Origin: a virus
Length of the DNA stretch: 32,083 nt
IMG/VR virus record: IMGVR_UViG_3300008459_000214
Location: 1-32,083 of that record
Reading direction: 5' to 3' (one strand)
Part shown: positions 1 to 32,030 of the stretch, piece by piece
How positions within the stretch are numbered: position 1 is the stretch's first letter
How the letters are laid out: each line of letters begins with the position of its first letter
Made by a program: the position numbers and the translations under genes
The notes under the pieces: model-generated
What the model was told of the DNA's origin: nothing
The model's database searches: none
The model's input: only the letters and a program-made list of their open reading frames with translations

Positions 1-153
1 GGAACACAACAAGTTTGTGATTTAGACACAGGGGATTGTTATACAATCAGAGAAAGAGATGGTCTTATTGAAAGAGCCGGACACCAAACAACTATTAATA
101 GAAAAGTTAGAGTTGAAACTGCAGGAGGAATTAAACAATTATTAAACGGATAA
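1..153 (+). CDS. C-terminal end of an unidentified protein (partial)
   Basis: Frame 1 is open from the window edge to a TAA at 151-153, giving 50 residues of a protein whose start lies outside the window. The stretch is mostly hydrophilic and has two cysteines (residues 6 and 13 of the visible part, in a short Asp/Gly-rich turn). It ends in a Gly-Gly-Ile-Lys-Gln-Leu-Leu segment. The next gene starts 5 bases after the stop, so the two are probably co-transcribed. I do not recognise a family, and the fragment is too short for a functional claim. Its neighbour suggests a phage gene, possibly structural, but this is inference only. Confidence 0.6.
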   Translation, partial: GTQQVCDLDTGDCYTIRERDGLIERAGHQTTINRKVRVETAGGIKQLLNG

Positions 154-158
154 TCAAA

Positions 159-857: not shown

Positions 858-867
858 TAAAAAATTC

Positions 868-895
868 AAAGGTGTCTTAACGGACACCTTTTTTT
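868..895 (+). terminator. Rho-independent terminator after the coiled-coil gene
   Basis: A 9-bp stem (868-876 pairing with 883-891) encloses a 6-base loop, and T residues run from 889 to 895. It lies 10 bases past the stop at 857. It separates the upstream transcription unit from the gp32 gene. Confidence 0.9.
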
Positions 896-897
896 AT

Positions 898-928
898 TTG
901 ACTTCACTAATTTTATCACCTATATTTA
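898..928 (+). promoter_or_regulatory. Candidate promoter for the gp32/replication block (Bacteroidetes-type)
   Basis: TTG at 898-900 is followed after 20 bases by TATATTTA at 921-928. This fits the Bacteroidetes primary-sigma pattern (-33 TTG, about 20 bases, -7 TAnnTTTG) with only the last base differing. The same sequence also reads as TTGACT-N17-TATATT, a good sigma-70 match. It sits just after a terminator and 32 bases before the gp32 ATG, where a promoter is needed. No transcription data are available. Confidence 0.55.
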
Positions 929-960
929 AAGGACAATTTAACAATTTAATTTTATAACAC

Positions 961-1815: not shown

Positions 1816-1827
1816 AATAAAACAATC

Positions 1828-1866
1828 AAACTTGGACATTTAGTTAGACACTTTGTCCAAGTTTTT
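1828..1866 (+). terminator. Rho-independent terminator after gp32
   Basis: An 11-bp perfect stem (1828-1838 with 1854-1864) surrounds a 15-base loop and runs into a T tract (1862-1866). It lies 13 bases after the gp32 stop. No promoter was recognised between it and uvsX at 1880, so uvsX may depend on read-through. Confidence 0.85.
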
Positions 1867-1879
1867 ATAATATTATTAT

Positions 1880-2890
1880 ATGGCAATTAAGAAAAACGAT
1901 TTCAAATCGATTAAAGATAAATTCTCAGTATCGGCAAAATACAAACCACAAAGATTTTTTGACTTAGGTCCTGATTTCTTGGATGCGGTTGGATTACCGG
2001 GACCAGCTATTGGACACCTTAATATGTTCTTAGGTCACTCCGATACAGGTAAAACAACAGCACTTGTAAAAACTGCCGTTGATGCACAAAAGAAAGGTAT
2101 TTTACCTGTCTTTATTATTACCGAACAAAAATGGTCATTTGAACATGCTAAGTTAATGGGGTTCGATTGTCAGGAAGTTGTTGATGAAGAAACAGGTGAA
2201 TTAGATTGGGATGGATTTTACATCTTTAATAATAACTTTAATTATATCGAACAAATTACTGATTACATTAATAATTTATTAGACGAACAAGAAAAAGGAA
2301 ACTTAGATTATAGTTTATGTTTTATGTGGGATTCAGTAGGTTCTGTACCTTGTAAAATGACTTATGAAGGTAAAGGTGGTAAACAACACAATGCTTCAGC
2401 ATTAGCGGATAAGATTGGAATGGGTATTAACCAAAGAATTTCGGGTTCTCGTAAGTCTGATTCAAAATATGAAAATACTTTAATCATTGTTAATCAACCA
2501 TGGGTTGAATTACCTGATAATCCATTTGGTCAACCAAAGATAAAAGCTAAAGGTGGAGAAGCAATTTGGTTAAACTCATCATTGGTTTATTTATTTGGAA
2601 ACCAAAAAGGGGCTGGAACAACTAAGATTACTGCAACTAAAGATAAACGAACTATTAAGTTTGCTTCAAGAACAAAAGTTTCGGTAATGAAGAATCACAT
2701 CAACGGATTAGGTTATGATGATGGAAAAATTATTGTAACACCACACGGATTCATTGCGGGTAAAGATAGTGCGGAAGAAAAAACTAATATTGAAAAATAT
2801 AAAAAAGAATACGCAGAATATTGGAAGGATATCATCGGAACTGATGGTGACTTCGACCTAAAAGAAGAAAAAGAAGAAAGAGAATTTTAA
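1880..2890 (+). CDS. uvsX: UvsX-like RecA-family recombinase
   Basis: This 336-residue RecA/UvsX-type ATPase would form filaments on ssDNA and catalyse strand exchange for recombination-dependent replication and repair. A Walker A motif GHSDTGKT lies at residues 52-59. A Walker B-like strand ending in Asp, CFMWDS, is at 147-152. A glutamate in the TEQKW segment (82) sits where RecA proteins have the catalytic Glu. The segment around 155-175 corresponds to DNA-binding loop 1, and a conserved VNQPW element follows. It is shorter than T4 UvsX (391), with an acidic C-terminal tail. The leader is A/T-rich with no Shine-Dalgarno. Its partner in filament loading would be the upstream gp32. The family is clear; UvsX rather than host RecA is inferred from context and from the residue pattern. 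Confidence 0.9.
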   Translation: MAIKKNDFKSIKDKFSVSAKYKPQRFFDLGPDFLDAVGLPGPAIGHLNMFLGHSDTGKTTALVKTAVDAQKKGILPVFIITEQKWSFEHAKLMGFDCQEVVDEETGELDWDGFYIFNNNFNYIEQITDYINNLLDEQEKGNLDYSLCFMWDSVGSVPCKMTYEGKGGKQHNASALADKIGMGINQRISGSRKSDSKYENTLIIVNQPWVELPDNPFGQPKIKAKGGEAIWLNSSLVYLFGNQKGAGTTKITATKDKRTIKFASRTKVSVMKNHINGLGYDDGKIIVTPHGFIAGKDSAEEKTNIEKYKKEYAEYWKDIIGTDGDFDLKEEKEEREF

Positions 2891-11696: not shown

Positions 11697-14600
11697 ATGG
11701 GTCAGTCTTATAGAATTAAAACCGAATTAGGTGTCAACAAAACTATTAACGTTGAGTTGGAGCAAGATTTTGAGTTTTTAGAAATATTATCATTAAAAAT
11801 ACAACAAGCTGATATCTACACAAGAAGTTGTGCGGACTATGGGGTAATTGTTGGAAGGGTTACTGCTAATAACGGATTTGGTATTCCAAACGCTCGAGTT
11901 TCGGTTTTTATCCCAATTAAAACTGTAGACGAATCTAACCCAATTATTACAAGTATATATCCTTACAAATCACCTACAGATAAAAATGAAGATGGTTATA
12001 GATATAATTTATTACCTTACGAAAAATCTTATTCCGCTCATGCCGCCACAGGAACTTTACCAACAAGAGAAGATAGTTTAACTGGTGCAACCGCAGTTGA
12101 AATATACGATACATATTACAAATATGCCACTAAAACCAATGAGAGTGGTGATTATATGATTATGGGAGTACCATTAGGTTCACAAACATTAGTGATGGAT
12201 GTTGATTTATCTGATATTGGTGAATTTTCATTGACACCTCAAGATTTAATTAGGATGGGATTGGCGACAGAAGGTCAAGTTGCCGGTAACAGATTTAAAA
12301 CCTCAACTGACTTAAGCTCCTTACCTCAAATAGTTTCATTAACAAAACAATTAGATGTTAGCCCATTATGGGGTGACCCTGACATTTGTCAAATTGCGGT
12401 AAACCGAATGGATTTTGACCTTAGAGATGATGCGAATATAGATATTCAACCAACATCGGTTTTTATGGGTTCAATTTATTCAACCGCTGATGGGTTTCGT
12501 GTGAGAAAAAATGCAAAACCTAGAGATGATATGGGTAATTTGTGTAGTTTAAATGCGGGTCCGGGTCAAATTTTAGCAATTAGACAAACTATACAAGAAG
12601 ATAGTGATGGTAATCCAATATTAGAACAATTTCAGTTAGAACAATCGGGAAACATTATTGATGGTAATGGTGTATGGTTGACCGAATTACCAATGAATTT
12701 GGATTATTTTATTACCAATGAATTTGGTGAGAAAGTTTTATCAAACGACCCTAATGTGGGTATTCCAACAAAAGGAAGATATCGTTTTAAAGTTAAATGG
12801 TCACAATCAGCTGGAGTTTCAGAACAGACTAGACGACCAAATTATTTAATACCTAACGTAAAAGAGTATGGGTGGGGAAATGAAGCAGTAAATGACTCTG
12901 CAAAACAAGAAGGTTCGTATTACTTTGGATTAGATTGGAGTGGGTATACAAAAGGATTTATTGGTAATACAGGACCAAATGTTCAACAAAGAAATCAGTT
13001 GTTAGATTCAAAAATAAATTGTGAGGATACTTTTTATGAATTCAAGTTTAATCGAGTATATACGGTTGCCGGTTTTATTGATGAATTTAAAAATGGTGCT
13101 AAAGGAAGATTTATAGGAATAAAAGAAATAGATAGTAATGAATGTGCATCTACTATAAATAAATTTCCGGTTAATGACGGATTTCGAAATTTTGATTTAT
13201 TATTTTTTATTTTTGCAATTTTAATGCAAATAATTCAATTAGTAGGCTTAGTTATACTTATAGTTTATCATTTTATTGCCTTTTTATGGAATAATTTTGC
13301 GGTTCCATTATTAGCTTATTTTATTGTTCAATTTGCTTTAAATGCGGGATATGAATTTTCTGCAGCAATCTCAGCTGCTTCCGGTGCTTCAGGATTTTCA
13401 TTTGGATTGTTGTTACTTATATTACCGTTTGTTTTAAAAGGGCTCTTATGGACAGCAATTGCGTTATTTTTAGCAATTAAATTTAGGGAAATTGTTTCTT
13501 ATAAATTTGGTAGGTTAAAATTACCAATGATACAATATCCTGATTGTCAAGCTTGTTCATGTGACGGAGAATCAACCGAACCTGGTGGAGGAGACGGTAC
13601 AAATCAATCACCTCCTCAAACAGGGTTGCTTAGTCAAGCGTCAAATCGTAATTTATATTATAATAATACAATACTTTATCAATCAAATTTAAACGCTACA
13701 GTATTTTCACAATATGGTGATAATATGGTCGGGTATGATGCTCAAATGAATTATCCTGGTTGTGGTGGGGGGTTTGCGGATGGTGCTAATAATTACCCTT
13801 GTAGTCCTTTTGGTCAAGAAACTATTGATGAATTTAATTCAATTGCCGCGAATATGAAAGTAGCGGCACTTGCTGGAGGTATAAACAAAATAAATGTTAG
13901 TGGAGTTGCTCAATACCCCAACTTTGTTAAAGAATTTGCGGTAGGATATTCTATTCCTCCCGGAGAGAGAATTAATATCTATAATACTCGTGGAAAATAT
14001 TTTACGGGTGAAAATAAAATAAAAGTTACTTTTTCTAAACCTAACAATGGTACGACTCACCATTTTGACAATACTTTAACTGTTTTATCGACTCAAGATT
14101 TACAAACAGGGGATTTACTTTCATTTATTGACATTGCTAAGTCGAAAGATGTCAATTTTTTATACACAGGAACAACAACTGTCGGTGGTAGATTAATTAA
14201 TGGTATTAACGGAGTTATTAATACTAATCAACAATCTGTAAATGTTACTTATGCTACTTCTCAAACACAGAATTCACAAGTTTTATATACATTACCACAA
14301 ATAACAGGGTATACTTGTGTTGATTCTGTTACTATTTCCGCTTCAACAGATGGTACTGTAACCTATCAGACTTGCCCGGGTTATACTGTAACAAACGTTG
14401 TTACAACAGGTACCACAACATTTACTAATGAATATGGTATTGATATTTCAACAACCGGAGGTACTGCGGAATATGTTGTAATTGCCTCAGGTCAAACATT
14501 ACAAAGATATATTTATCCATCTGATATTGAATATTATCAAGTATTAACCGCCATAACAATTACAACTACTGTTGTTAACGGGGTTACAACATATACTAAT

Positions 14601-17048
14601 CCAAATTTTAACGGAACTACAGGTTTTTGGGGAGCTCTTAATGCTCCTAACACTATTCAAGTTTGGAATGAAATAGATGCTGCCAGTGATGGTAGAAAGG
14701 GTTGGGGTATAATTAGACCGACAGAAAATGTACCAACAACTACATTTACTGATTTTGTAGAACAAAAAGTATTAATATTACAAAGAGGTGTGGACTCTAA
14801 TTCACCAAAATACCTAAATCAATATGGTATTGGTAAAATTTTAGGGTATCCAAATGAAGATGATGTAGTTATAACTGGATATACAAGATTAAATATACCA
14901 ATACAACGTTTAAATACGTCAACTAATGGAAATATAAGTGTTCAAAATCATAGAAACCAAAATAATATTTTTTATCCATCATATGTTTATACACCAGGTA
15001 TACCAAATTCAACATATGTTGGTAATATTTGGAGTGGATTTACTACTGATAATGTTGGTTATTATGGAAGTTTGGATAGTCAAAACTTTCCAACAGGTAC
15101 TGTTACAGTTTTACAACCGTTTTCAAATGGTGGGGTTACAGGGTTAAGAACAACTTCAAGTGGTACTCAAGGAGGAGGAGGAAATCGTTATTATTCTGCA
15201 AGTGTTGCGAATAATCGTTATGATAGTTCTGAAGATTTATCAGGAGGGGCAGTTATATGGGGAGACTACGAAAGTTCTGACTTTTTCCTTGGGTGGTTTT
15301 TAAACACTATTCCTATTAGTAATAGATACAATGGTGCACCAACTTCAGTATATGTAAGTCCGGTTTTATATTCTTCATTTACAGGATTCTCAACCTCTAC
15401 TAGTGGTCAATTAAGTATTACAAATTCTAATGGATATAAACCGGTTATGAGAACTGACAGACTACCTTCATCTGATTATTCTGATAATAGTAAAGGGTTT
15501 GTTCCGGGTCAAAATTCTAGTTTATTACAACAAAATTTAGGATTTGCAGTTTACTCTGTTGACTCAGGTATTGGGTATTCTGTGACTACTACAGCATTTA
15601 GTACTGGTGCTGATATTGTAACCGCGGATATTGATGGACAAGTTGCAGCTGTTAATGTAGTTTCAAGTTTAAACTCATGTGAAAGCATGGTTGGATTAAC
15701 TTGTTATCAAGGAAATGGTATAAACTTTGGTGTTAAACCCAATTGTCAGGCTGATGATTATGTTGAGAATGGATGTTATGTTATGGTTAATAGACCTTTA
15801 CTCGATTTAAGTAAAGATGTTGCAACGTTTAATGAGTGGGCATTTAGATTTAGATTTTTCTATGGATTATGTAGAGGGGTTTTATCACAATCTTTTGTTA
15901 ATAATTGGGTGAATGGTTCTTTGTATATGTTTCCAATCCAAGTAGATATTGAATATGATAGTAATAATCAACCAGGTACTCCTAAATTTGCAACTAGATT
16001 AGTTTATTATGATGACTCAAGTAATAATTTTTATTATAGAAGTTCACCATTTAAGCTTGACAACTCATCAAGTATTAGTGGAGATTTCGTTGGACTACCG
16101 TCAGCCGGACAATCTGCACCTACAAATGTGAGACAATTATTATTCCCAACAACAATTATTAATTTGGGTATAAAAGATGACTTTTATCAAGAAATAATTT
16201 TTGACCCATCAGCTAAAGGTTATATAATGAAAAATTTAAATTCGACAAGTTATTCTGATACTTCTGATTTAGTGAATTTATTTGTTATAAGTAGAATTAC
16301 TGATGAGTCGTTTTTACAACAATTAATATCATTTAATCCAAATAATAATTTAGACCAATTATTTTCAAGACAATATAAAAGAATTGATGGAGACTTAGCT
16401 CAAACTATGTCTATAAATTCGGAGTTTGGAGTAATTCCTTTTTCTCCTGAATTTTATAGTAGTTTGGGATTACCTTCAGACCCTGTTCAAATTTTAGGTT
16501 CATTGGGTAACCCAACAATGGCAATTTATTTTTCTTCTACAACTTTTGATTTACAAAATAAAGATTATTTGAGTCCGGGGGTTATTGATTTCAGACCGTC
16601 AAATAATGCCAATGCTCTGACATATTATTATGGTATTAAATCTCAAGAGGTACCATATTATCAATGGACCAGAGATACTAATCCAACAACAGGGGTTTTC
16701 GGTACTCAAAATAATAATTGGGCGACAAATTATAATGAAACTTCTTCATCTTCAGGGATATTTTCATATCCATATCAATCACTCAATAGACGTGATGATG
16801 GGATTACACATCCGAGTTATTTTATTCCATCAAATACCGCGTTGAGTGATACATTCGCTCGTGGTTATATCTTTAACTTATCTGCACAAACATACACTGA
16901 TTTTACATATTCTGCAACATATGGGTATAATACGTGGTCAGGAAGAAACAAATTTTTAGTAGGTGCACCAAATCATTTTTATTTTGGACTAATTAAAGGG
17001 GAGACCGCTCTTGATAAATTTAAAGAAAAATATTCGATAAATGAATAA
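11697..17048 (+). CDS. Giant baseplate/tail protein with internal hydrophobic block
   Basis: This 1783-residue protein is the largest in the window and sits where T4 encodes the gp7/gp8 wedge proteins. The N-terminal 180 residues look like a transthyretin/carboxypeptidase-regulatory-like beta domain (VIVGRVTANNGFGIPNARVS near 50-69, and NESGDYMIMGVPLG near 148-161). Residues 501-595 are strongly hydrophobic and divide into three or four helix-length segments. A Cys motif CQACSC (617-622) and a Gly/Ser/Pro linker come next. The remainder is beta-rich, Asn/Thr/Ser/Gly-rich and fibre-like, with a Thr/Val repeat zone (about 840-965) and a compact C-terminus. The stop overlaps the next start by 8 bases, so the genes are coupled. 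A structural role is inferred from context. The membrane-like block is unusual for a virion component. Confidence 0.8.
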   Translation: MGQSYRIKTELGVNKTINVELEQDFEFLEILSLKIQQADIYTRSCADYGVIVGRVTANNGFGIPNARVSVFIPIKTVDESNPIITSIYPYKSPTDKNEDGYRYNLLPYEKSYSAHAATGTLPTREDSLTGATAVEIYDTYYKYATKTNESGDYMIMGVPLGSQTLVMDVDLSDIGEFSLTPQDLIRMGLATEGQVAGNRFKTSTDLSSLPQIVSLTKQLDVSPLWGDPDICQIAVNRMDFDLRDDANIDIQPTSVFMGSIYSTADGFRVRKNAKPRDDMGNLCSLNAGPGQILAIRQTIQEDSDGNPILEQFQLEQSGNIIDGNGVWLTELPMNLDYFITNEFGEKVLSNDPNVGIPTKGRYRFKVKWSQSAGVSEQTRRPNYLIPNVKEYGWGNEAVNDSAKQEGSYYFGLDWSGYTKGFIGNTGPNVQQRNQLLDSKINCEDTFYEFKFNRVYTVAGFIDEFKNGAKGRFIGIKEIDSNECASTINKFPVNDGFRNFDLLFFIFAILMQIIQLVGLVILIVYHFIAFLWNNFAVPLLAYFIVQFALNAGYEFSAAISAASGASGFSFGLLLLILPFVLKGLLWTAIALFLAIKFREIVSYKFGRLKLPMIQYPDCQACSCDGESTEPGGGDGTNQSPPQTGLLSQASNRNLYYNNTILYQSNLNATVFSQYGDNMVGYDAQMNYPGCGGGFADGANNYPCSPFGQETIDEFNSIAANMKVAALAGGINKINVSGVAQYPNFVKEFAVGYSIPPGERINIYNTRGKYFTGENKIKVTFSKPNNGTTHHFDNTLTVLSTQDLQTGDLLSFIDIAKSKDVNFLYTGTTTVGGRLINGINGVINTNQQSVNVTYATSQTQNSQVLYTLPQITGYTCVDSVTISASTDGTVTYQTCPGYTVTNVVTTGTTTFTNEYGIDISTTGGTAEYVVIASGQTLQRYIYPSDIEYYQVLTAITITTTVVNGVTTYTNPNFNGTTGFWGALNAPNTIQVWNEIDAASDGRKGWGIIRPTENVPTTTFTDFVEQKVLILQRGVDSNSPKYLNQYGIGKILGYPNEDDVVITGYTRLNIPIQRLNTSTNGNISVQNHRNQNNIFYPSYVYTPGIPNSTYVGNIWSGFTTDNVGYYGSLDSQNFPTGTVTVLQPFSNGGVTGLRTTSSGTQGGGGNRYYSASVANNRYDSSEDLSGGAVIWGDYESSDFFLGWFLNTIPISNRYNGAPTSVYVSPVLYSSFTGFSTSTSGQLSITNSNGYKPVMRTDRLPSSDYSDNSKGFVPGQNSSLLQQNLGFAVYSVDSGIGYSVTTTAFSTGADIVTADIDGQVAAVNVVSSLNSCESMVGLTCYQGNGINFGVKPNCQADDYVENGCYVMVNRPLLDLSKDVATFNEWAFRFRFFYGLCRGVLSQSFVNNWVNGSLYMFPIQVDIEYDSNNQPGTPKFATRLVYYDDSSNNFYYRSSPFKLDNSSSISGDFVGLPSAGQSAPTNVRQLLFPTTIINLGIKDDFYQEIIFDPSAKGYIMKNLNSTSYSDTSDLVNLFVISRITDESFLQQLISFNPNNNLDQLFSRQYKRIDGDLAQTMSINSEFGVIPFSPEFYSSLGLPSDPVQILGSLGNPTMAIYFSSTTFDLQNKDYLSPGVIDFRPSNNANALTYYYGIKSQEVPYYQWTRDTNPTTGVFGTQNNNWATNYNETSSSSGIFSYPYQSLNRRDDGITHPSYFIPSNTALSDTFARGYIFNLSAQTYTDFTYSATYGYNTWSGRNKFLVGAPNHFYFGLIKGETALDKFKEKYSINE
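13197..13481 (+). other. Membrane-like hydrophobic block inside the giant tail protein
   Basis: This stretch codes for residues 501-595. Residues 501-530, 534-548 and 567-595 are almost free of charged residues and rich in Leu, Ile, Phe and Val. A small-residue Ala/Ser/Gly stretch lies at 555-566. The segments look like three or four transmembrane helices. The single lysines at 581 and 595 and an Arg-Lys-rich tail flank the last one. Confidence 0.75.
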
Positions 17049-21598: not shown

Positions 21599-24585
21599 TG
21601 GCAGTAAATACGACAACAACTAAATATTTTTATCCGCCAAGACCTGGTAGTGGGGCTGCAACTTTTTCCGACAACATTGTAGGTTTACAAACAGTTGAGG
21701 GTGGTGGTTTAACGCAAGGTAATTTTGAGTTTACTACTTCAGTTACTGAAAAAGTTAATAGAAATTTTAACGTTGGGGCGTTTTCAGAACCGTTAAGTTT
21801 ACAATCATTAAACATTGAGGATGTTAATGAAAGTAGAAGAATTATGGCAACTCAGTTTAGGGTTTATCCTAATTATGATGTTTCACAAGTTCTAAACTTT
21901 TCGATGTATGGTTCTTTACGTAAAAGATTCCAAGTATCCGCGACAAAAATTATTAATTATTTTCCCGCCTCATTAGATGTTCAATTTTCAAACTTACAGT
22001 TTGTGACAGGAGCTACGGCAGTTAATGTTAGTTATGACCCTATTGAAGACGAAACTTATTTTCAACTTAATGTTGATAGGATTAATAATCCTTTTGATAT
22101 TGATTATTCCGTAAGTGCGGCAACCAATTTAAATTTAAGGGAAATCACAACTTCACCGTATAGAAATTTATATAACACTTATTTAGACTATTGTGTTAGT
22201 ATAAATGATAATATATTCAAAATAAATTCATTTCAACCATCGGATACATTAGGTAGTGGTTATATTAGTTTTTATGTTTCAGGTGCCCCTTTTGGAGAAT
22301 CTGCGACTACAGTTTTTGAGGAATACCAAATTAGACCGAATGATTTAATTACTGATAAGATATTTGCAGAAAGTTTTGATGAAGTTGAAAAATTCTTATT
22401 AAATAGGTTAATAAGACCTGAATACACTGCGGTTTTTCAAGTTCCTGCTCAAACTGAAAATGGTGAATTTTTTACAGATTACCAACAAGTTACTTGGCCT
22501 AAAGACGGCCCTTGGAACTTAGATATTAGGTCATTACAATTTGATGGTTATTTGGCTCAATTGGATGCAATTGCGGAAAATTTAGATTCATTTAAAACAA
22601 ATTTAATTTCAAGATTTTTGGTAACAGACTCGTTAAAAGAGTTTGACACTATGGGTCAAAAAGTTGAGAAGATATTTCAAATTTATGGTAGAAGTTTTGA
22701 CCAAATAAAACAATTTATAGATGCGTTGGCTTATATGAATTCGGTCAACTACAATCCGTCGAATGATATACCATCACAGTTACTTGTTAATCTTGCTCAA
22801 ACATTAGGGTGGTCATCAAATTTCTCACCAATTACTGATGAAGATTTTTTAGAATCGGTATTTGGAAACACTTCAACGCCAACTTATCCTGGTTATGCAA
22901 GAGCGTTAACACCTACTGAAATTAATTACGCATATTATCGTAATTTAATTATTAATGCCTCTTACTTATTTAAGTCAAAAGGAACAAGAAGGTCCGTTGA
23001 ATTTTTAATGAGGTTAATTGGTGCTCCGGATTCGTTAATTGAATATAATGAACATATCTATTTAGCCGACCAAAAGATTAATTTAGACCAATTCTATACA
23101 CAATGGGCAACAATATCAGGAGGGACTTATGTTGATAATACCCCAGCCTATTTACCTGGTCAAACGTATAAAATTAGAGGTAATGTTTATTCCGCTTATA
23201 CATCAATTGCAACATATGAAGATGTATCGATAAGGTTAGATGAATACCCTATGGATAGTTTAGGGTTTCCTAAAGCTCCTGTTAATACCGAAAGTTATTT
23301 TTTCCAAGTTGGTTCGGGATGGTATGAATCAACTCCACAACATAGAAGTCCGGATGAGGTGATTATTACCGGTGATGTTTATACCGGTCAAAATTATAAT
23401 ATCCAAACTAGTTTAACCCCATTTACGTATGGACAACCTTATTTAGATAGATTTAGACAATTCCCTTACATGAATGAAGGGTTTAAGTTAAGAAAAGTTG
23501 TTGATAATAAAAAGTCTTGGTTAGAAGAAGATAATAGAGTTAGAGTATCGACTGAAGGTGATTATAATGCCTATTATTACGTTGACGATGAAAAACTAGT
23601 ATTAAATGTTAAAAATGTGGATTTATTTTTAAATCCTTCCCAAGGTCTTGTTTATGATGTTTGGAGACAATCGGTTAATTATGATTACCCAATACCTGAA
23701 TCCGGATTAACTGTTGGTTATCCTGTTCCGGGAGGTGTGGATTGGACTTATATCAATCCTGAACCTAAAAAGAAAACATTCTTTGAATTCTCACAAACGT
23801 TTTGGGAGAATATGATTAATGTTAGAAATAGACAATACATTAGTGATGGTAAAACAGGTGGGTATCCAACATTACAATCGATATGGTGGAAATACATTGA
23901 ATCTGAGGCGACAGTTGGATTGCCAAATAGTAAATATACTTATCAAAAACTTATTGATTATGTTACAGGTATTGGCCCTTATTGGATGAAATTGGTAGAA
24001 CAAATGTTTCCTGCCACAACAATTTGGAATACCGGTGTTAAATTGGAGAATTCAGTTTTACATAAACAAAAATTTGTTTATAGAAGACAAAGAGGATGTC
24101 AATTTGTTCCGGTTCCTGTTAATCCTTGTTTTATAATTAATAGTATCTTTGATTTCAATTGTGCAACCGAAACAACGGTATTTAACGTATTTCCATGGTT
24201 AAATGGAGACCCTAATGTTGGGAATTTTAATAGTATTTTAGCAAACCGAATTGATAATATGTTAGCTCAAAATAATTTAACATTAAATGACTGTGAACAA
24301 ACCTCAGTGCAAACCGAATGGTATGTTGATTTAAGAATTGGTGGTGAATTATTAATTAAAGAACCATTTTATGTGGGTTATGGATATACCGATGTCCCAA
24401 CACTACAAATGTGGAGGATTGCATTATTCGATAATCTATCATTATTATATGATTATGGATTTACTTACGAAATAGAAGGAAATACTTTAACGATACAAAG
24501 TTTAACTTGTACCGAAAGAAATGTTAATGAATTGTTAACTTTAAATGTGGGTATACAAATAAATATAAATTGTAATAATAACTAA
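21598..24585 (+). CDS. Large baseplate protein with gpI/gp7-like signature
   Basis: This 995-residue protein contains, around residues 440-485, a segment reading NASYLFKSKGTRRSVEFLMR. It is preceded by QLLVNLAQTLGWSSNF. This is the pattern of phage P2 gpI-type tail proteins (aligned helices, then KGT plus a hydrophobic helix), and P2 gpI is regarded as the counterpart of T4 gp7. T4 gp7 is 1032 residues, close to this length, and it pairs with gp6. The N-terminal 250 residues are beta-rich. The middle contains Tyr/Pro-rich loops. The C-terminal 150 residues hold several cysteines and a domain that may resemble the end of the next protein. The start and stop each overlap their neighbours by one base. 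gp7 assignment is tentative because gene order differs from T4. Confidence 0.75.
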   Translation: MAVNTTTTKYFYPPRPGSGAATFSDNIVGLQTVEGGGLTQGNFEFTTSVTEKVNRNFNVGAFSEPLSLQSLNIEDVNESRRIMATQFRVYPNYDVSQVLNFSMYGSLRKRFQVSATKIINYFPASLDVQFSNLQFVTGATAVNVSYDPIEDETYFQLNVDRINNPFDIDYSVSAATNLNLREITTSPYRNLYNTYLDYCVSINDNIFKINSFQPSDTLGSGYISFYVSGAPFGESATTVFEEYQIRPNDLITDKIFAESFDEVEKFLLNRLIRPEYTAVFQVPAQTENGEFFTDYQQVTWPKDGPWNLDIRSLQFDGYLAQLDAIAENLDSFKTNLISRFLVTDSLKEFDTMGQKVEKIFQIYGRSFDQIKQFIDALAYMNSVNYNPSNDIPSQLLVNLAQTLGWSSNFSPITDEDFLESVFGNTSTPTYPGYARALTPTEINYAYYRNLIINASYLFKSKGTRRSVEFLMRLIGAPDSLIEYNEHIYLADQKINLDQFYTQWATISGGTYVDNTPAYLPGQTYKIRGNVYSAYTSIATYEDVSIRLDEYPMDSLGFPKAPVNTESYFFQVGSGWYESTPQHRSPDEVIITGDVYTGQNYNIQTSLTPFTYGQPYLDRFRQFPYMNEGFKLRKVVDNKKSWLEEDNRVRVSTEGDYNAYYYVDDEKLVLNVKNVDLFLNPSQGLVYDVWRQSVNYDYPIPESGLTVGYPVPGGVDWTYINPEPKKKTFFEFSQTFWENMINVRNRQYISDGKTGGYPTLQSIWWKYIESEATVGLPNSKYTYQKLIDYVTGIGPYWMKLVEQMFPATTIWNTGVKLENSVLHKQKFVYRRQRGCQFVPVPVNPCFIINSIFDFNCATETTVFNVFPWLNGDPNVGNFNSILANRIDNMLAQNNLTLNDCEQTSVQTEWYVDLRIGGELLIKEPFYVGYGYTDVPTLQMWRIALFDNLSLLYDYGFTYEIEGNTLTIQSLTCTERNVNELLTLNVGIQININCNNN

Positions 24586-26720
24586 TGGCGATTAATTATA
24601 TCATAAATGTAACGGGGGATTGTCAAAATAATTCGAGTGGGGTGATTGATTTATTAGTCTACAACGGCTCATCCCCATATACCATAGAATGGATTTCTCC
24701 GGTATTAACGACAAATACTCAAGTAACCGGAACGGTGACAAAAACCGGGTTACTTAGTAATACATATGCTGTTAAAGTTACCGATAGTTCAATACCTGAT
24801 AATCAAGTTGAATATATTAATATTCCTGTATCTAGTGGTGTTTGCTGTAGTATATTAGGTGTTCAAGATACAACTTGTTCACAAAATAATGGTTCAGTGA
24901 CAGGAACTTCAACAACTCAATATTCTTCAACAAATTATTATTTGTATCACGGGAATGGGGTTTATAGTCAATCTGCAACAACAAATCAAAATAGTGTTGT
25001 TTTTGGAAGTTTAACCGCTGGAACTTATTATATGACAGTTCAGGATTTAGGAGGATGTACGGGTCGTAGCCAAAATTTTATTGTTGAAGAATCGGAGCCA
25101 TTAAATTATGGTTTATATATGGTTCCAAACTCATCATGTGGTGGTACTCCAATTGGTAAATTAACTGTTACAGGATTAACCGGACAACCACCTTTTACAT
25201 ATTTGTGGAATAATACTTCAACAGGTTCGACTATTACAGGTTTAACTTCAGGAGCTTATTTTGTTAATGTGACTGATGGGTATGGGTGTCAATTAAGCCA
25301 AAGCGAAACTGTAATTGATGTTAATCCAATTGGATTTGGATTGTTTACATCAGTTCCACCAACTTGTTTTTCTTCCAATGGAGAGATTACATTAACAATA
25401 ACAGGTGGAACTGCACCTTATTATTATTCTGCTTCCACAGGTCAGGTAGAAATATCTTATTCTCAAACATTTTCAATATCAGGTTTATCTTCGGGTAATT
25501 ATGGGTTTTTAGTGACTGACGCAGGTTTTTGTCAATTATCCGTTAATACTTCAATAACATCACCAAATGGGATTTCCTCAGTTTCCGTTCAAACCACAAA
25601 TTCAACTTGTTCAAGTACAAATGGGCAAATAACTATATCCGTAATTGGAGGTGTAACTCCTTATACTTATACAATAATTTATCCATCAGGAGATGTTATT
25701 AACTCAAGCGGAAGTCAAACGGTTCAACTATTCGAGAATTTATCTGCCGGAACTTATTCGGTAGGTGTAAGTGACGATTCGGGATGTTCTTATTTGGATG
25801 AGTTTTATATTATGACTGATAATAAGTATACAATCTTGACATCAGTTACAGGTACTTCTTGTAATCAAGTAAATGGTTTGATTGGAATTACTGTTAGTAC
25901 AGGTGCGACATTACCACTTAATTATTCTATTGATAACGGGTTATATGATATTTTAAATACAAATTTAACTGCGGTAACCTTTAATAATATTGCCGCTGGA
26001 ACACATAAGGTTACCGTAACAGATGCATCAGGATGTGCTCAATCTTCAAGTGTGTTAATTACTGGAAGTGAAAGATTAGATTACTCATTATATAGTACAT
26101 CTTGTGGTACGGGTAATAGTGGTAAAATAACTGCATTTATAAACTCAGGTACACCACCATTTTCTTTCTATTGGTCGGATAATGTACCAAATAATCCACA
26201 ACAAATTCAAGTATCAGGTTTAACGGGAGGGACTTATAGTTTAACTATCGTGGATGATGGTGGATGTTCATTAGTTAGAACGGCATCAATTAGTTGTTTT
26301 GCCAATTTAACATCGTATCAAACTTATGTTATGGGAGAGGAAGTATTCAATATTGAATCACCAACTAGATTTGGTTTATTACAAATGTTGAATGAAGGTT
26401 TTTCTGATTTAACATCAGATAATGAAAGATGTGATTTAGTTAGTGCAACATTTACTGCAAAAGTATCTGTAACACCACTTGATTTAACAACTAGTGAATT
26501 ATTTTTTACAACAAACTCATTAAATATTTATCCAACGGATGATGAATATTATGAAACAATTAAACAGTTATTATTAACTGTTCCAGGGGTTGGAAATGTC
26601 ACAATAAACGCTCTGACAAATCAAATTACAATTGAGACGACAAGGGGTAATGATACTTTAGACGGTCAAGAAATTATTATTGATTTGATTATTGAGTATG
26701 ATATAATGTGTTTGAATTAA
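24585..26720 (+). CDS. SprB-repeat tail protein (probable adhesin)
   Basis: This 711-residue protein consists of about seven tandem repeats of roughly 80 residues (10-573) and a distinct C-terminal domain (574-711). Each repeat has a Cys near its start, a GxI-type strand, a Gly-Gly-x-x-Pro-(Tyr/Phe) turn, an LxxGxY element and a closing V-T-D-x-x-G-C. This is the SprB repeat first defined in the Flavobacterium gliding-motility adhesin. In bacteria such repeats form extended Ig-like rods on the cell surface. In a phage tail locus the likely role is a rigid stalk or host-binding adhesin. There is no signal peptide or type IX secretion C-terminal sorting domain. The start shares one base with the upstream stop, and a small related protein follows after 3 bases. 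Capture from a flavobacterial host is plausible. Confidence 0.85.
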   Translation: MAINYIINVTGDCQNNSSGVIDLLVYNGSSPYTIEWISPVLTTNTQVTGTVTKTGLLSNTYAVKVTDSSIPDNQVEYINIPVSSGVCCSILGVQDTTCSQNNGSVTGTSTTQYSSTNYYLYHGNGVYSQSATTNQNSVVFGSLTAGTYYMTVQDLGGCTGRSQNFIVEESEPLNYGLYMVPNSSCGGTPIGKLTVTGLTGQPPFTYLWNNTSTGSTITGLTSGAYFVNVTDGYGCQLSQSETVIDVNPIGFGLFTSVPPTCFSSNGEITLTITGGTAPYYYSASTGQVEISYSQTFSISGLSSGNYGFLVTDAGFCQLSVNTSITSPNGISSVSVQTTNSTCSSTNGQITISVIGGVTPYTYTIIYPSGDVINSSGSQTVQLFENLSAGTYSVGVSDDSGCSYLDEFYIMTDNKYTILTSVTGTSCNQVNGLIGITVSTGATLPLNYSIDNGLYDILNTNLTAVTFNNIAAGTHKVTVTDASGCAQSSSVLITGSERLDYSLYSTSCGTGNSGKITAFINSGTPPFSFYWSDNVPNNPQQIQVSGLTGGTYSLTIVDDGGCSLVRTASISCFANLTSYQTYVMGEEVFNIESPTRFGLLQMLNEGFSDLTSDNERCDLVSATFTAKVSVTPLDLTTSELFFTTNSLNIYPTDDEYYETIKQLLLTVPGVGNVTINALTNQITIETTRGNDTLDGQEIIIDLIIEYDIMCLN
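24612..26303 (+). repeat. Array of about seven SprB-type protein repeats
   Basis: The repeats are visible at protein level with a period near 80 residues, marked by paired cysteines and the recurring closing motif V(T/S/Q)D-x-x-G-C. At DNA level they have diverged too far to form exact repeats. The first copy is the most degenerate. Confidence 0.8.
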
Positions 26721-27095: not shown

Positions 27096-28922
27096 ATGCC
27101 GATATATCAAAGATTAACCGACCGACAATTTTCACCTAGTGCGGTTACACTTAACAATTTAATACATATTGTAATTACTGGTGATACTTCACAAAGTCCT
27201 CAAGGTTCTTCTTTTAAGGTTACCTTGGGTGATGTTGCGCGTGTTATGTCCGGAGGAACCGGAACATCAGGTACAAGTGGGACTTCGGGTGTTAATGGAA
27301 CATCAGGTACAAGTGGGGCTTCGGGGTCTTCAGGTACAAATGGTACGTCAGGTACGTCGGGTACAAGTGGAATTAATGGTACTTCAGGGACTAGTGGTGT
27401 AAATGGGACTTCAGGTACTGGTGGAACATCAGGGACTAGTGGAACATCAGGTACGTCAGGTACGTCAGGTACGTCAGGTACGAGTGGTATTAACGGAACT
27501 AATGGTACTTCAGGAACTTCTGGAGTTAATGGTACTTCAGGTACAAGTGGGACAACCGGTACATCAGGAACATCAGGTACGTCAGGTACGAGCGGAACAA
27601 CAGGTACAAGCGGTACTTCAGGTACTAGCGGAACAACGGGTACAAGTGGAACTAATGGTTCAAGTGGAACATCAGGTATAAACGGACAATCAAATTCATT
27701 ATTCCCATATAACGCAAGAACAAGTATTACATCAGGAGACCCTGGTAATACAAATATTATTTGGAATAATGCAACACAATCAGCATCAACACAAATAAAC
27801 GTTTCACATTTAGATAGAAATAATGATGATATTGATGTATTTTTGGCATTAATTCCAAGTGGAACAACAATCATTATTCAAGACCAAAATAATTCAACTC
27901 AATTTCAAAAATGGATTGTGGGAGTGGGTGTTGATGCCGGACCAAATACATATTGGACTTATCCTGTTACATTAGTCCAATCAACCTTTCAATTTACAGG
28001 TGGGGAAAATATATTATTTATTGTAGCACAATTACCATCAGGAACTTCAGGAACAAGTGGAATAGATGGAACTTCAGGTACTAGTGGTACTTCAGGTCTT
28101 AGTGGAGTAAATGGTACTTCAGGTACAAGTGCGACAAGTGGAACTTCAGGTACTACAGGTACTTCAGGAACATCAGGAGTTGATGGTACTTCAGGGACTA
28201 GTGGAACTAGAGGTACTTCGGGAACTTCAGGAGTTAATGGTACTTCAGGTACATCAGGAGTTAGTGGTACTTCAGGGACTAGTGGAACTAGAGGTACTTC
28301 GGGAACTTCAGGAGTTAATGGTACTTCAGGTACATCAGGAACAACAGGAACTTCAGGTACATCAGGAACATCAGCAGTCAATGGTGCAAGTGGAACATCA
28401 GGAGTTAGTGGTACTTCAGGTACATCAGGAACTTCCGGTTCTGTTAATATACTGAATAATGTTAATAACCGATTAACAACTGCTACCGGTAACGCAGGTG
28501 AATTACAAGCTGAGGCTAACTTAACTTTTGATGGTTCAACTTTAAGAATTACTGGTGATACTGTTATGACAGGTTCATTAACCGCGGCATCTAAATCATT
28601 CGATATCCCTCATCCAACTAAAGAAGGTTATCGTTTAAGATATGGTGTATTAGAGGGTCCTGAACATGGTGTTTATTTTAGAGGTAGTACTACACAAAAA
28701 GTAATTGAATTACCGGATTATTGGGTTGGATTAGTTCATGAAGATAGTTTTACGGTAAATCTAACCTCAATAGGTAAACCTTGTGAAAACTATGTTATTG
28801 AAATTAAAGATAATAAAGTATTCTTTGATAGTGGTTGTGAAGATATTAATGTGTTTTATTTAATATATGCAGAACGAAAAGATGTTGAAAAAGTTTTATT
28901 GGAATATAAACCAATAAAATAA
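27096..28922 (+). CDS. Collagen-like (Gly-Thr-Ser)n tail fibre
   Basis: This 608-residue fibre protein has five parts: a globular N-terminus (1-52), probably the virion attachment site; a Gly-x-y block (53-199), mostly Gly-Thr-Ser; a globular middle domain (200-315); a second Gly-x-y block (316-447); and a C-terminal region (448-608). The last holds a [12 protein letters not shown] motif (500-511) and an [17 protein letters not shown] segment seen in other phage fibre tips. Collagen-like triple helices are a known way to build trimeric phage fibres. Here the triplets contain no proline, so stability must come from other residues or from glycan modification of Thr/Ser. Two triplets start with Ala instead of Gly. 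The gene has its own upstream element and terminator. It faces a convergent glycosyltransferase gene. Confidence 0.87.
27252..27692 (+). repeat. First Gly-x-y repeat block (49 triplets)
   Basis: A 9-base tandem periodicity encodes 49 consecutive Gly-x-y triplets, mostly Gly-Thr-Ser with some Gly-Val-Asn, Gly-Ile-Asn and Gly-Thr-Thr. Varied Thr and Ser codons show that the protein sequence is being kept. Confidence 0.95.
27450..27482 (+). repeat. Perfect 9-bp microrepeat in the fibre gene
   Basis: The unit ggtacgtca is repeated 3.7 times without a mismatch. Because the unit is a multiple of three, gain or loss would change fibre length without a frameshift. Confidence 0.9.
28041..28436 (+). 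repeat. Second Gly-x-y repeat block (44 triplets)
   Basis: This block holds 44 triplets in frame, again mostly Gly-Thr-Ser, with Gly-Val-Asn, Gly-Thr-Arg, Gly-Val-Asp and Gly-Thr-Thr variants. Two triplets begin with Ala (Ala-Thr-Ser and Ala-Val-Asn), which would kink or weaken a collagen helix. Confidence 0.95.
28185..28340 (+). repeat. Exact 75-bp direct repeat (period 81 bp)
   Basis: Bases 28185-28259 recur identically at 28266-28340, an 81-base (27-residue, 9-triplet) period. Synonymous codons are also identical, so this is a recent segmental duplication within the fibre gene. Confidence 0.92.
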
Positions 28923-28928
28923 TAATAA

Positions 28929-28957
28929 AAAAAAAGGGACATATAGTCCCTTTTTTT
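28929..28957. terminator. Bidirectional terminator between fibre and glycosyltransferase genes
   Basis: A 12-bp stem (28929-28940 with 28946-28957) and a 5-base loop are flanked by an A run (28927-28935) and a T run (28951-28957). It therefore works in both directions. The minus-strand stop codon (28956-28958) lies within the T run. Confidence 0.92.
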
Positions 28958-31900
28958 ATTTAATTAAATGTTGTATTTGGTCTATAACCATTTTTGGTAA
29001 AATTGATGTGTGACATTCGAATTGTCTTTCAGTTCCTTTATGTACGGGACACCAATTCCAATCTCCTTTATCAAAAGTAAATTCAGGTTTATTCCAACAT
29101 CCATTACATACACTTTGGTTTATAATTCTAGTACAATTTGTTGTAAATTCATGGTCAGGTTCGGTGAAATTACTAATCATAACAACTTCTTTACCTAATC
29201 CCCAAGCTAACCAAGATAAACCACTTGATAAACCTATAAATAATTCACTGTGGTTAATAACACTTATGGTGTGAGACATTGATGTGTTTTCAATTTTATT
29301 TGCGTTCTCAAATGGATTATCCTCTTTTGAAACATTAATTACTTTATAACCTAAACTGTGAAGGTAATTAATTAATGTTTGCCACGCCTCTCTTGTCCAG
29401 AATTTACATCCTGACGTTGAATTAGTTGCAATGGTAACATATTTCTTCTGATAAGGTCTTGGATTGGTAGGGTTATGTATTTTTGGTTTTATTTCTACAT
29501 AATCTAAACCTAATATATTAGTTATTGTTTTTTGTAATGGTATTAAATTAGGTTGAATTGGTTCTTTGTTTTTATCATAAAACCACCCAATAGAATACAT
29601 TGCGATTAAATTTGGTACAGGTATACCCGGTGTTACAAACTCTATTTCAGGGTACTCACTTTCAAATAAATGATTCCAAAAAGTTGATACAATGACCTTA
29701 CAATTATGTTTCTTTTTGAATTCCATAACATAAGGAATCCATGCAATTGAATCACCTAATGATTTACTATCAAAAGCAATATAAACTCTCTTGTTTATAA
29801 AGTTTAAGGTATTGTCATAGATAATAACATTATCACGAGTTACAGTTGTTCTCCATTTGGTGTAATAATTTCTACTTAGTTTAACCCAATGATTTGGTTT
29901 TATTGTATTTTCATAGTGACAAACGCCTTCTTCATCAAAGAATTTTATATTATAATCTTTATCACCTGTACCTTTAATCTCTAAAAAAGGTTCTTTAACA
30001 AAATGTTGAAATATTTGAACTTCTTCATCAATAATAGTTTGTTGTTTAATAGGTTGATTTAATATTCGTTGATATAATTCATAATTTTTTTCTGAAAATT
30101 CTTTTGTTGTGTATGATGGGAACTCGTAAACTTTTTCATCTTTAATTAAATCTAAAAGTTGATTTTTCATATCAAAAATATCACCCGACATTTGTTTAAT
30201 ATAAGGTGTGAACATATCCATGTATTGTGGCAAGTTTCTTGCTAATATTTTTAATCCGTAAGAAATACCCTCTCGTAATACTAACGGGTTACATTCCCAA
30301 GTTGAATTAAACATTAGTACATCGGCTGCTGCCATAAAATCACTAACATTATCTTTTTCTCCCCACACTCTAACATTGGATGGTAAATCTTTCATAATTG
30401 GTTCCCAATAATTTTGGAAGTTTGGAGCTTGGTTTCCAATAAAATGAAATTCTAATTCAGGGTGAAAATTTTCGACTAATCGAGCAATTTCAACACCTTC
30501 CTCTTGATTTTTACCGGATGTCCATAATCCAACATTTATAATGTGAATTTTATTTGGGTCTAAACCTAATTTTTCTTTAGCACTTTCTTTTGACAATACA
30601 ATTGTTGGGTTATAAGGGAATTCAATTACTTCACCATGTGATGGCATATTCATAAAGGTTACTTCTTTATGGAATGGAGAGCAAAATGAATAAGCCTCAG
30701 GATGGAATATTTTTTCACTATCCGGTTGGAATACCACATTATGACAAGTTTCAACAACTCTCCATGTTCGGTCGTTTTTATAGATAAAATTCATTAAGTC
30801 ATTTGATAGTTTGTTGTGAGCGTCAAATGCCTCAATCATTTCATCTAAGTGAATTATATCAAAATAATTATCTTCAATAATTTTCTTTAATTCGTTTTTA
30901 TCTTCACCTAAGGTCCAAAAATGGGTTGGTGGTATTAACTCTTTAATTCTGTTTTTTTGAACAACATAGTGGTCGCTATGGTTTGAATATTCCACTACAA
31001 ATAATTCCATCTTATCTTGATAATATTCCAATAACGATTCAATTCGTTTTAATAGGAATGATGGCATCCCTCCGGTTGATAAGTGAGGTGCTAAAAATAA
31101 TACTTTCGACTTCTCATTACCGTCAATTATTTCAAACATTTTATCAATTTCCGATTGACGTTTTTCTCCGTGGAAAACTTTTATGTTATTTTTGTCTTCA
31201 GGTATTGTGTAAAATTCTCTAACTGTTGTACGTTTATTTCCGTTAAATTTAAAGAAATGTTTTAGTGTGTCAGCTCCGGTAACATTAATATATGAAATTG
31301 GTAAACCTTCATGATTTGGATTTATTTTCCATGTTAATACATTGTATATTGTTTCTTCATGGTATGGGGTTATCTGTTTTAACGAAACTAATTTTGGTAA
31401 AATATCTTTAGTTTCTTTCCATGTTCTTAAAAAATCCTTTGTATTGGAATTACCAACCAAAAGATTTGTGGTTTTATAATAACTTCTTTGATTTGGTTGT
31501 AATCCCATAAATTTCATTAACGGCCACTCCAAAGTATTTTCATAATCAATCTTATCGTCTTCTTTCCAAAACGGATTTCCAACCAAGGAACCATCAGGAT
31601 TAACTAACAAGACATATTCATAAGGACCTAAAGTTGCCAATGGAAATTCTTTTACTTTTTCACAATAATCAAATAGTTCGTCAACATTTTTATTTACAAT
31701 ACTATCTGAGTCAATATAAACCCATTCGTCGATTATTGAGGATGCGTCTAACATTACGTCAATTTTTGCGCCTAATGTTAGATATGTTCTTATTTGTTCT
31801 CTATTAACGTATGAATTACCACTAAGGTCTGAAATAAAACTTGATTCGTTAATTTCAGGTAGATTTAAGTTTAATCTAATACAAGTTGTTTCTTTTTGTA

Positions 31901-32030
31901 ATTTATCTGAACCATCATAATCTATGGTATAAACAAAAATTTTGTATTTGGAATATTTTTGAATACTTGTAACTAAATTTAATGTTATGTGTTCATAATT
32001 TTCAGTTGTGTGAGTTATAAATGCTCTCAT
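28956..32030 (-). CDS. Three-module glycosyltransferase with heptosyltransferase-like C-terminus
   Basis: This 1024-residue protein seems to fuse three glycosyltransferase modules. Residues 1-300 look GT-A-like, with a metal-binding YIDSDS motif (D107/D109) and a late His in VFHGE (288). Residues about 308-665 look like a GT-B, GT4-type enzyme: APHLSTGGM (314-322), GLWTSGKNQEEG (501-512), and an E-x7-E pair E579/E587. Residues about 665-1024 resemble autotransporter O-heptosyltransferases (TibC/Aah): SLGDSIAWIPYV (757-768), GLSSGLSWLAWGLGKE (933-948), and four cysteines C975, C978, C994, C1006 like the iron-finger pattern of that family. No signal peptide or membrane helix is present. It is the only minus-strand gene and ends head-on against the fibre gene. 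No clear promoter was recognised in 32031-32083. Targets could be phage proteins or host surface molecules. Confidence 0.87.
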   Translation of the reverse strand: MRAFITHTTENYEHITLNLVTSIQKYSKYKIFVYTIDYDGSDKLQKETTCIRLNLNLPEINESSFISDLSGNSYVNREQIRTYLTLGAKIDVMLDASSIIDEWVYIDSDSIVNKNVDELFDYCEKVKEFPLATLGPYEYVLLVNPDGSLVGNPFWKEDDKIDYENTLEWPLMKFMGLQPNQRSYYKTTNLLVGNSNTKDFLRTWKETKDILPKLVSLKQITPYHEETIYNVLTWKINPNHEGLPISYINVTGADTLKHFFKFNGNKRTTVREFYTIPEDKNNIKVFHGEKRQSEIDKMFEIIDGNEKSKVLFLAPHLSTGGMPSFLLKRIESLLEYYQDKMELFVVEYSNHSDHYVVQKNRIKELIPPTHFWTLGEDKNELKKIIEDNYFDIIHLDEMIEAFDAHNKLSNDLMNFIYKNDRTWRVVETCHNVVFQPDSEKIFHPEAYSFCSPFHKEVTFMNMPSHGEVIEFPYNPTIVLSKESAKEKLGLDPNKIHIINVGLWTSGKNQEEGVEIARLVENFHPELEFHFIGNQAPNFQNYWEPIMKDLPSNVRVWGEKDNVSDFMAAADVLMFNSTWECNPLVLREGISYGLKILARNLPQYMDMFTPYIKQMSGDIFDMKNQLLDLIKDEKVYEFPSYTTKEFSEKNYELYQRILNQPIKQQTIIDEEVQIFQHFVKEPFLEIKGTGDKDYNIKFFDEEGVCHYENTIKPNHWVKLSRNYYTKWRTTVTRDNVIIYDNTLNFINKRVYIAFDSKSLGDSIAWIPYVMEFKKKHNCKVIVSTFWNHLFESEYPEIEFVTPGIPVPNLIAMYSIGWFYDKNKEPIQPNLIPLQKTITNILGLDYVEIKPKIHNPTNPRPYQKKYVTIATNSTSGCKFWTREAWQTLINYLHSLGYKVINVSKEDNPFENANKIENTSMSHTISVINHSELFIGLSSGLSWLAWGLGKEVVMISNFTEPDHEFTTNCTRIINQSVCNGCWNKPEFTFDKGDWNWCPVHKGTERQFECHTSILPKMVIDQIQHLIK

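What the first reader, a model, noticed from the sequence alone, without database searches (positions are those of the whole stretch)
28956..32030. Fusion of GT-A, GT4 and autotransporter-heptosyltransferase-like modules in one phage gene
Three apparently complete sugar-transfer modules lie in one open frame of 1024 codons: a DSD-type GT-A module, an E-x7-E GT4 module, and a C-terminal module with four cysteines spaced C-x2-C-x15-C-x11-C. Each retains key residues, so the protein could build a di- or trisaccharide in sequence. I know of no described phage enzyme of this build.
Basis: partly seen in the sequence, partly recalled or inferred. Interest (0 to 1): 0.7.

Follow-up and report, generated by a model that had tools for sequence, protein, structure and literature searches.

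The report
Phage sugar-chain builder beside tail fibre
A phage gene joins three sugar-transferring enzymes in one protein and, in many diverse phages, lies beside a giant fibre rich in serine and threonine, suggesting these viruses carry their own machine for coating their tail fibres with sugar chains.

Summary
The minus-strand ORF (28956-32030, 1024 codons) encodes three complete glycosyltransferase domains: GT8-like GT-A (Z 17 to glycogenin), GT4 (Z 28 to HepE) and a TibC-type module (Z 37, 31% identity), with conserved catalytic residues and all four iron-finger cysteines.

It is not a curiosity of one phage. TibC-type modules occur in over 560 viral stretches, fused in varying ways to GTs, methyltransferases or a pyruvyl transferase, yet I found none in the bacterial chromosomes searched.

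The substrate is probably next door. A convergent gene 33 bp away encodes a proline-free collagen-like tail fibre of (Gly-Thr-Ser)n. Of 37 non-redundant TibC loci with adequate flanks, 34 have a Ser/Thr-repeat gene (GTSG or mucin-like TPT) nearby, against 0 of 80 random loci. A cultured cyanophage, Mel-JY01, shows the pair independently.

Best explanation: a single-chain assembly line that O-glycosylates virion fibres. The TibC module starts on Ser/Thr; GT4 and GT-A extend (order inferred). It is not a plain BAHT: the ring-forming thumb is missing and the adenine-contacting Arg is Thr/Val, so the donor may not be ADP-heptose. No activity has been shown.

The parts
28956..32030 (-). whole ORF, 1024 aa, triple glycosyltransferase fusion (stop codon included)
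   Evidence: homologues over the full length in viral contigs
31119..32030 (-). module A, residues 1-304: GT-A fold, GT8-like; DxD D107-S-D109, invariant R77, E225, E226, H287, K290
   Evidence: AF2 pLDDT 86, pTM 0.87; Foldseek prob 1.00; VIA Z 17.2 to glycogenin, 16.3 to Skp1 galactosyltransferase, 16.0 to LgtC; Pfam Glyco_transf_8 in 2 of 29 homologues, best 5e-6; invariants
30051..31118 (-). module B, residues 305-660: GT4 (GT-B fold); G320-G321, K507, E579-x7-E587
   Evidence: PF00534 E 1.6e-10; VIA Z 28.0 to HepE; conservation
28959..30050 (-). module C, residues 661-1024: TibC/BAHT-type (N-terminal beta domain, GT-B catalytic domain, iron finger); D760, T872, K876, W940 equal TibC D110, T226, K230, W305
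   Evidence: TIGR04414 282 bits against cut-off 200; TibC 4rap E 3.6e-51; VIA Z 37.2, rmsd 2.2 over 348 residues
29013..29108 (-). iron-finger motif, C975-x2-C978-x15-C994-x11-C1006
   Evidence: sequence; 42 of 42 phage rows; PMC4358343
28929..28957 (.). terminator-like hairpin with T runs on both strands, between the two convergent genes
   Evidence: consensus scan; the number of hits is no higher than in shuffles, but this one fits the convergent gap
27096..28922 (+). proposed acceptor: collagen-like tail fibre, 608 aa, Gly-X-Y blocks (60 GTS triplets, no proline in the blocks)
   Evidence: PF01391 1.3e-36; PHROG tail fibre families, best 2e-39; triplet count
27252..27692 (+). first Gly-X-Y block of the fibre (residues 53-199)
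28041..28445 (+). second Gly-X-Y blocks of the fibre (residues 316-450, two short interruptions)

Best explanation
The gene encodes a single-polypeptide glycan assembly line that O-glycosylates the phage's own Ser/Thr-repeat tail fibre in the cytoplasm before virion assembly. Inferred steps: the C-terminal TibC-type module attaches the first sugar directly to Ser/Thr of the (Gly-Thr-Ser)n repeats, using D760 as base; the GT4 module adds a second sugar; the GT8-like GT-A module adds a third, probably from a UDP-sugar. Fusion keeps the three steps on one long repetitive substrate. The sugar coat probably stiffens and protects the proline-free collagen-like fibre and may shape adsorption. Shown here: the three folds, conserved active sites, wide viral distribution, modular fusion and fission, and tight linkage to Ser/Thr-repeat genes. 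Inferred: activity, donors, order, acceptor and benefit.
For: Folds and active sites. Module C belongs by score to TIGR04414, whose characterised members put heptose on Ser of secreted proteins rather than on LPS. Linkage to Ser/Thr repeats: the neighbour at 33 bp is a GTS-repeat tail fibre. Of 37 non-redundant TibC-type loci with at least 6.5 kb on both sides, 34 have a GTSG or TPT repeat ORF in the flanks, 33 within 5 kb; 0 of 80 random viral loci (707 kb) do. Whole records chosen for TibC blind to repeats: GTSG in 29 of 34 (30 with one doubtful hit), against 2 of 32 random records (Fisher 2e-11); 3 of the GTSG-negative ones have the TPT repeat instead, against 1 of 32 random records. Reverse test: records found by GTSG alone have a TibC-type gene in 15 of 28, against 1 of 22 records with proline-type collagen (P 2e-4) and 0 of 32 random; that one exception also has 38 GTSG hits. 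Independent case: cultured Microcystis phage Mel-JY01 has a GT4+...+TibC fusion about 2.2 kb from a GTSG/GSS fibre ORF. Rosetta-stone evidence: modules A, B, C occur as ABC, BC, BAC, or as separate adjacent genes (A next to BC; BA next to C), and with methyltransferase, GT25, GT9 or pyruvyl transferase domains.
Against: No biochemical or mass-spectrometric evidence. Two GTSG-rich random records have no TibC in the fragment and no obvious GT beside the fibre, so the repeat can exist without it, or the gene lies elsewhere. One divergent branch (GT9+GT4+TibC, records G079 and G080) has neither repeat type in any convincing number. The repeat gene is on the opposite strand in 34 of 34 loci, so linkage could reflect a fixed gene order at the end of the tail operon; the loci are partly related, so the P values overstate independence. 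R286 and the thumb of TibC are lost, so donor and substrate binding may differ.
Confidence: 0.68

Rival explanations
1. The fusion modifies a host cell-surface glycan or outer-membrane protein (LPS, capsule or an adhesin) to block superinfection or change the receptor; the fibre next door is only its receptor-binding neighbour.
For: Phage GTs that modify host surface sugars are well known, and PF01075/GT9 includes LPS heptosyltransferases. A huge-phage heptosyltransferase has been annotated as LPS heptosyltransferase I (PMC10747093). SprB-repeat domains in the window hint at surface biology.
Against: Module C scores 282 bits to the protein O-heptosyltransferase family and only 27 bits (cut-off 185) to LPS heptosyltransferase I. 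The gene goes with Ser/Thr-repeat genes of two different kinds, and rarely with proline-type collagen fibres. No lipid carrier or flippase gene was seen beside it in the window.
Confidence: 0.17
2. It glycosylates other virion or phage proteins, such as the SprB-repeat/Hoc-like protein (24585-26717) or TPT-rich mucin-like proteins, with the GTSG fibre a bystander.
For: Close relatives carry a TPT-rich ORF on the other side of the GT (L078), and most TibC records without GTSG have TPT repeats.
Against: GTSG is the commoner partner, and no TPT ORF is present in the sequenced part of this phage. The two readings are not exclusive.
Confidence: 0.12
3. It modifies phage DNA bases (as the alpha/beta glucosyltransferases of T4 and relatives do).
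For: Many phage GTs act on DNA, and the window's replication and baseplate genes are T4-like.
Against: Module C is of a protein-modifying family; no base-modification genes were seen near it; linkage is with fibre genes.
Confidence: 0.03

Closest known systems
BAHT family: TibC (ETEC), AAH; NCBIfam TIGR04414
   Same: Fold over 348 residues (Z 37.2), catalytic Asp, phosphate-binding Thr and Lys, sugar-binding Trp, iron-finger Cys4; acceptor proposed to be Ser/Thr of a repetitive extracellular fibre.
   Different: Fused C-terminally to GT-A and GT4; the beta-hairpin thumb that makes the dodecamer ring is missing; adenine-contacting R286 is Thr/Val; stereoselectivity residue P300 is Ser as in AAH; the partner is a phage fibre.
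Mycobacteriophage virion glycosylation (Freeman et al. 2023, as cited in PMC12619734)
   Same: Phage-encoded glycans on virion proteins.
   Different: There the sites are the C-termini of capsid and tail-tube subunits; nothing says the enzymes are of the BAHT type; here the proposed target is a long Ser/Thr repeat.
Mimivirus L230 and Bacillus BclA collagen-like glycoproteins (PMC9614988)
   Same: Collagen-like surface fibres that carry sugars; with L230 a virus encodes a multi-domain enzyme for its own collagen-like protein.
   Different: L230 acts on hydroxylysine; BclA is a bacterial spore protein; neither uses a TibC-type enzyme as far as I know.
Multi-domain LPS/O-antigen GTs such as WbbM
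   Same: Several GT domains in one polypeptide (WbbM is among the fold matches of module A).
   Different: These build lipid-linked polysaccharides and, as far as I know, have no TibC module.

Membership tests
BAHT / TibC (TIGR04414) | curated family score cut-off (200 bits) | tested here: met
   282 bits; 42 of 42 phage rows match the model at E<=1e-5
BAHT / TibC (TIGR04414) | TibC fold including N-terminal beta domain | tested here: met
   VIA Z 37.2, rmsd 2.2, 348 residues, model range 670-1024
BAHT / TibC (TIGR04414) | catalytic base D110 and donor residues T226, K230, W305 | tested here: met
   D760, T872, K876, W940 invariant in 42 rows; residues from PMC4358343
BAHT / TibC (TIGR04414) | R286 contacting adenine (ADP-sugar specificity; R286A abolishes or largely diminishes activity) | tested here: not met
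   T921; 38 Thr and 4 Val in 42 rows (ungapped part of the alignment)
BAHT / TibC (TIGR04414) | iron finger Cys-339/342/358/370 | tested here: met
   C975, C978, C994, C1006 in 42 of 42 rows
   gap in the phage sequence over the thumb tip, TibC about 261-270; segment S901-I925 is 24-26 residues in all phage rows
BAHT / TibC (TIGR04414) | cognate autotransporter encoded nearby | tested here: inconclusive
   Ser/Thr-repeat genes, in the window a tail fibre, are the recurrent neighbours; autotransporters were not searched for systematically and the window is a fragment
BAHT / TibC (TIGR04414) | heptose transfer from ADP-heptose; dodecameric ring with Fe(III) | not testable with these tools
   needs purified protein
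GT8-like GT-A | GT-A fold with DxD and C-terminal H-G-x-K type motif | tested here: met
   Z 17.2 to glycogenin; D107/D109 and H287-G288-E289-K290 invariant
GT8-like GT-A | Pfam Glyco_transf_8 gathering score | tested here: not met
   window protein has no Pfam match in this part; only 2 of 29 homologues match, best 5e-6
GT4 | PF00534 gathering score and E-x7-E with GT-B fold | tested here: met
   41.2 bits against 26.4; E579-x7-E587; Z 28.0
Collagen-like phage tail fibre (27096-28922) | PF01391 and PHROG tail fibre | tested here: met

The most novel reading that the evidence does not exclude
Large tailed phages have their own family of protein O-glycosylation assembly lines: a viral branch of TibC-type initiators, combined in one polypeptide with interchangeable extension and tailoring domains, each matched to a Ser/Thr-repeat virion fibre, giving tails a mucin- or proteoglycan-like sugar coat.
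Probability: 0.55. Interest if true: 0.87.

Novelty: new variant of a known kind. Interest (0 to 1): 0.74.

Why it matters
If true, glycosylated fibres would be a common trait of large environmental phages, and the length and make-up of the glycan might be read from the domains of one gene. It would explain long Pro-free (Gly-Thr-Ser)n and (Thr-Pro-Thr-x)n arrays in phage tails, which have no assigned role that I know of. Glycosylation of threonine is thought to contribute to collagen heat stability in Riftia (PMC10141479), so the sugars could help such a repeat form a triple helix at all. It would bear on host range, decay in water, and recognition by antibodies or bacterial defences, and would give a one-gene O-glycosylation tool for a simple repeat peptide. 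The cultured phage Mel-JY01 makes it testable now.

Tried and rejected
Sequence search for module A against PDB with a 29-row profile: only a weak hit, E 0.05; the fold search settled it. Bacterial origin or host copy: a scan of 84,980 species gave one hit, a truncated piece of module B at the end of a Bacteroidetes MAG contig, and a module-C profile found only partial weak GT9 matches (40 bits at best) in 395 Bacteroidota genomes: so no sign of a host gene picked up by this phage. Baseplate relatives as a phylogenetic control: not informative, because the contigs end inside the GTSG array before reaching the GT. UvsX relatives: too close to serve as a control. Proximity as a sampling artefact: a random AT-rich 15-mer sample and a proline-collagen sample were used instead and speak against it. 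GTSG as chance: the same pattern read backwards gave 0 hits in nearly all records. Papers: no report found of a TibC-type phage enzyme, nor of GTSGTSG in phages; the library lacks most subscription journals. The fold search on the whole model is dominated by module B, so module A was folded alone.

Full report
Observation. The ORF on the minus strand at 28956-32030 is real, 1024 aa, without internal stops. The window is the whole of its record, a 32,083-base virus fragment. The rest of the window is a tailed phage with gp32-, RecA/UvsX-, exonuclease-, DnaB- and ribonucleotide-reductase-like genes, then baseplate wedge genes.

Three modules. Residues 1-304, alone, fold with pLDDT 86 and pTM 0.87 into a GT-A domain: Foldseek probability 1.00, Z 17.2 to glycogenin, 16.0 to LgtC. 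D107, D109, R77, E225, E226, H287 and K290 are invariant in 29 homologues. Residues 305-660 are GT4: PF00534, Z 28.0 to HepE, GG, K507 and E-x7-E conserved. Residues 670-1024 are TibC-like: 282 bits to TIGR04414, cut-off 200, Z 37.2 with rmsd 2.2 over 348 residues. The full-length model has pLDDT 83 but pTM 0.55, so the relative placement of the modules is not known.

What module C keeps and what it has lost. From the TibC paper (PMC4358343) the base is Asp-110, the donor residues Thr-226, Lys-230, Arg-286 and Trp-305, the iron-finger Cys-339/342/358/370, the thumb tip Phe-265/Val-266, and Pro-300 sets D,D selectivity (Ser in AAH). In the alignment these map to D760, T872, K876, T921, W940, C975/978/994/1006, a gap, and S935. 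Across 42 phage rows everything is invariant except the R286 site (38 Thr, 4 Val) and the P300 site (38 Ser, 3 Gly, 1 Pro), and none has the thumb. So the chemistry is probably kept, the ring probably not, and the nucleotide of the donor is open. This is an inference from residues, not a measurement.

Distribution. In bacteria there is nothing comparable: one broken fragment among 84,980 species and only weak partial GT9 matches in 395 Bacteroidota. Among complete ORFs at 72 non-redundant TibC loci the architectures are ABC (44, of which 28 have a further N-terminal extension), BC (14), C with another N-terminal part (7), GT9-like+BC (4), BAC (1), C alone (1). Extra domains include FkbM and other methyltransferases, pyruvyl transferase, GT25 and GT9. 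In some loci A and BC, or BA and C, are separate neighbouring genes. Fused in some genomes and adjacent in others, they probably serve one pathway.

The neighbour. Thirty-three bases away, convergent, with a hairpin flanked by T runs on both strands between them, is a 608-aa collagen-like protein (PF01391 1.3e-36, PHROG tail fibre 2e-39). Its Gly-X-Y blocks hold 60 GTS triplets and no proline. In relatives the fibre reaches more than 3000 aa in the part sequenced. Other loci have instead, or as well, ORFs with (TPTx)n, like mucin repeats.

Test of the link. In 37 non-redundant TibC loci with at least 6.5 kb on both sides, 34 have such a repeat ORF, 33 within 5 kb; in 80 random viral loci none. 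At the level of records: of 34 TibC-bearing records, chosen without looking at repeats, 30 have the triple GTSG pattern (one of them, G080, has a single hit and four in the backward control, so I count 29) against 2 of 32 random ones. In the reverse direction, 15 of 28 records found by GTSG alone carry a TibC-type module, against 1 of 22 with proline-type collagen and 0 of 32 random ones. The loci are partly related to each other, so the P values are optimistic, but the diversity of architecture and the two repeat types argue for repeated association. Exceptions are listed under evidence against.

A cultured example. Microcystis phage Mel-JY01 (PP395634.1) has a 1226-aa protein with GT4 at its N-terminus and a TibC-type module (404 bits) at its C-terminus; it is annotated as FkbM methyltransferase. 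At record position 2-2599, plus strand, is an ORF of at least 866 aa with GTSG/GSSG repeats. The record annotates instead an antisense ORF there.

Mechanism. TibC-family enzymes act on Ser of repetitive surface proteins, with the enzyme forming rings around the substrate (PMC4358343). The natural reading is that module C begins a glycan on Ser/Thr of the fibre and B and A extend it, on the same polypeptide, with tailoring domains in other phages. The order C, B, A is my inference from what family C does. The likely effect is a stiff, protease-resistant, sugar-coated fibre; threonine glycosylation is thought to help collagen stability in Riftia (PMC10141479).

Known or new. Virion glycosylation of phages is known from mycobacteriophages (cited in PMC12619734), collagen glycosylation by a giant virus from L230 (PMC9614988), BAHT enzymes from pathogenic bacteria. 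I found no description of their combination in phages. Module C passes the family score but fails two features described for TibC, so I describe it as a viral branch that works like a BAHT rather than as a BAHT proper.

Noticed in passing
L692:2-2599 (PP395634.1, Microcystis phage Mel-JY01): GTSG/GSS-repeat fibre ORF of at least 866 aa on the plus strand; the record annotates an antisense ORF (WWT39287.1, VPEVPRVPLVPEL repeats) instead. Antisense VPxVPx ORFs over such repeats are also seen in the window (27200-27874 and 27989-28381, minus).
   Followed up: partly
window 24585-26717: 711-aa protein with SprB repeats (PF13573 1.7e-23) and a weak Hoc-like match, between baseplate genes and the fibre: a flavobacterial-adhesin-like repeat in a phage virion cluster.
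   Followed up: no
L233:1-658 (RGEC01000037.1): Bacteroidetes MAG contig that begins with a broken fragment of the viral GT4 module followed by ordinary bacterial genes: probably a mis-assembly or a remnant.
   Followed up: partly
L673-L676 (records G096 and G110): Two related phage records with GTSG arrays spread over about 14 kb between capsid-type genes and a sheath-like gene, with no TibC-type gene in the fragment; what, if anything, modifies them is open.
   Followed up: partly
L077:4748-9502: 1585-aa ORF with at least five domains: GT4, GT-A, GT25, TibC-type, FkbM methyltransferase plus DUF6165.
   Followed up: partly
L052, L054, L058, L065: Divergent branch, 31-38% identical in module C, mostly with a GT9-like domain in front of GT4+TibC, next to sugar epimerase and cytidylyltransferase-like genes in some; no convincing GTSG or TPT repeats in the two records searched (G079, G080).
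   Followed up: partly
window 11697-17048: 1783-aa protein between baseplate genes with no PHROG match; a large unknown, probably tail, protein.
   Followed up: no
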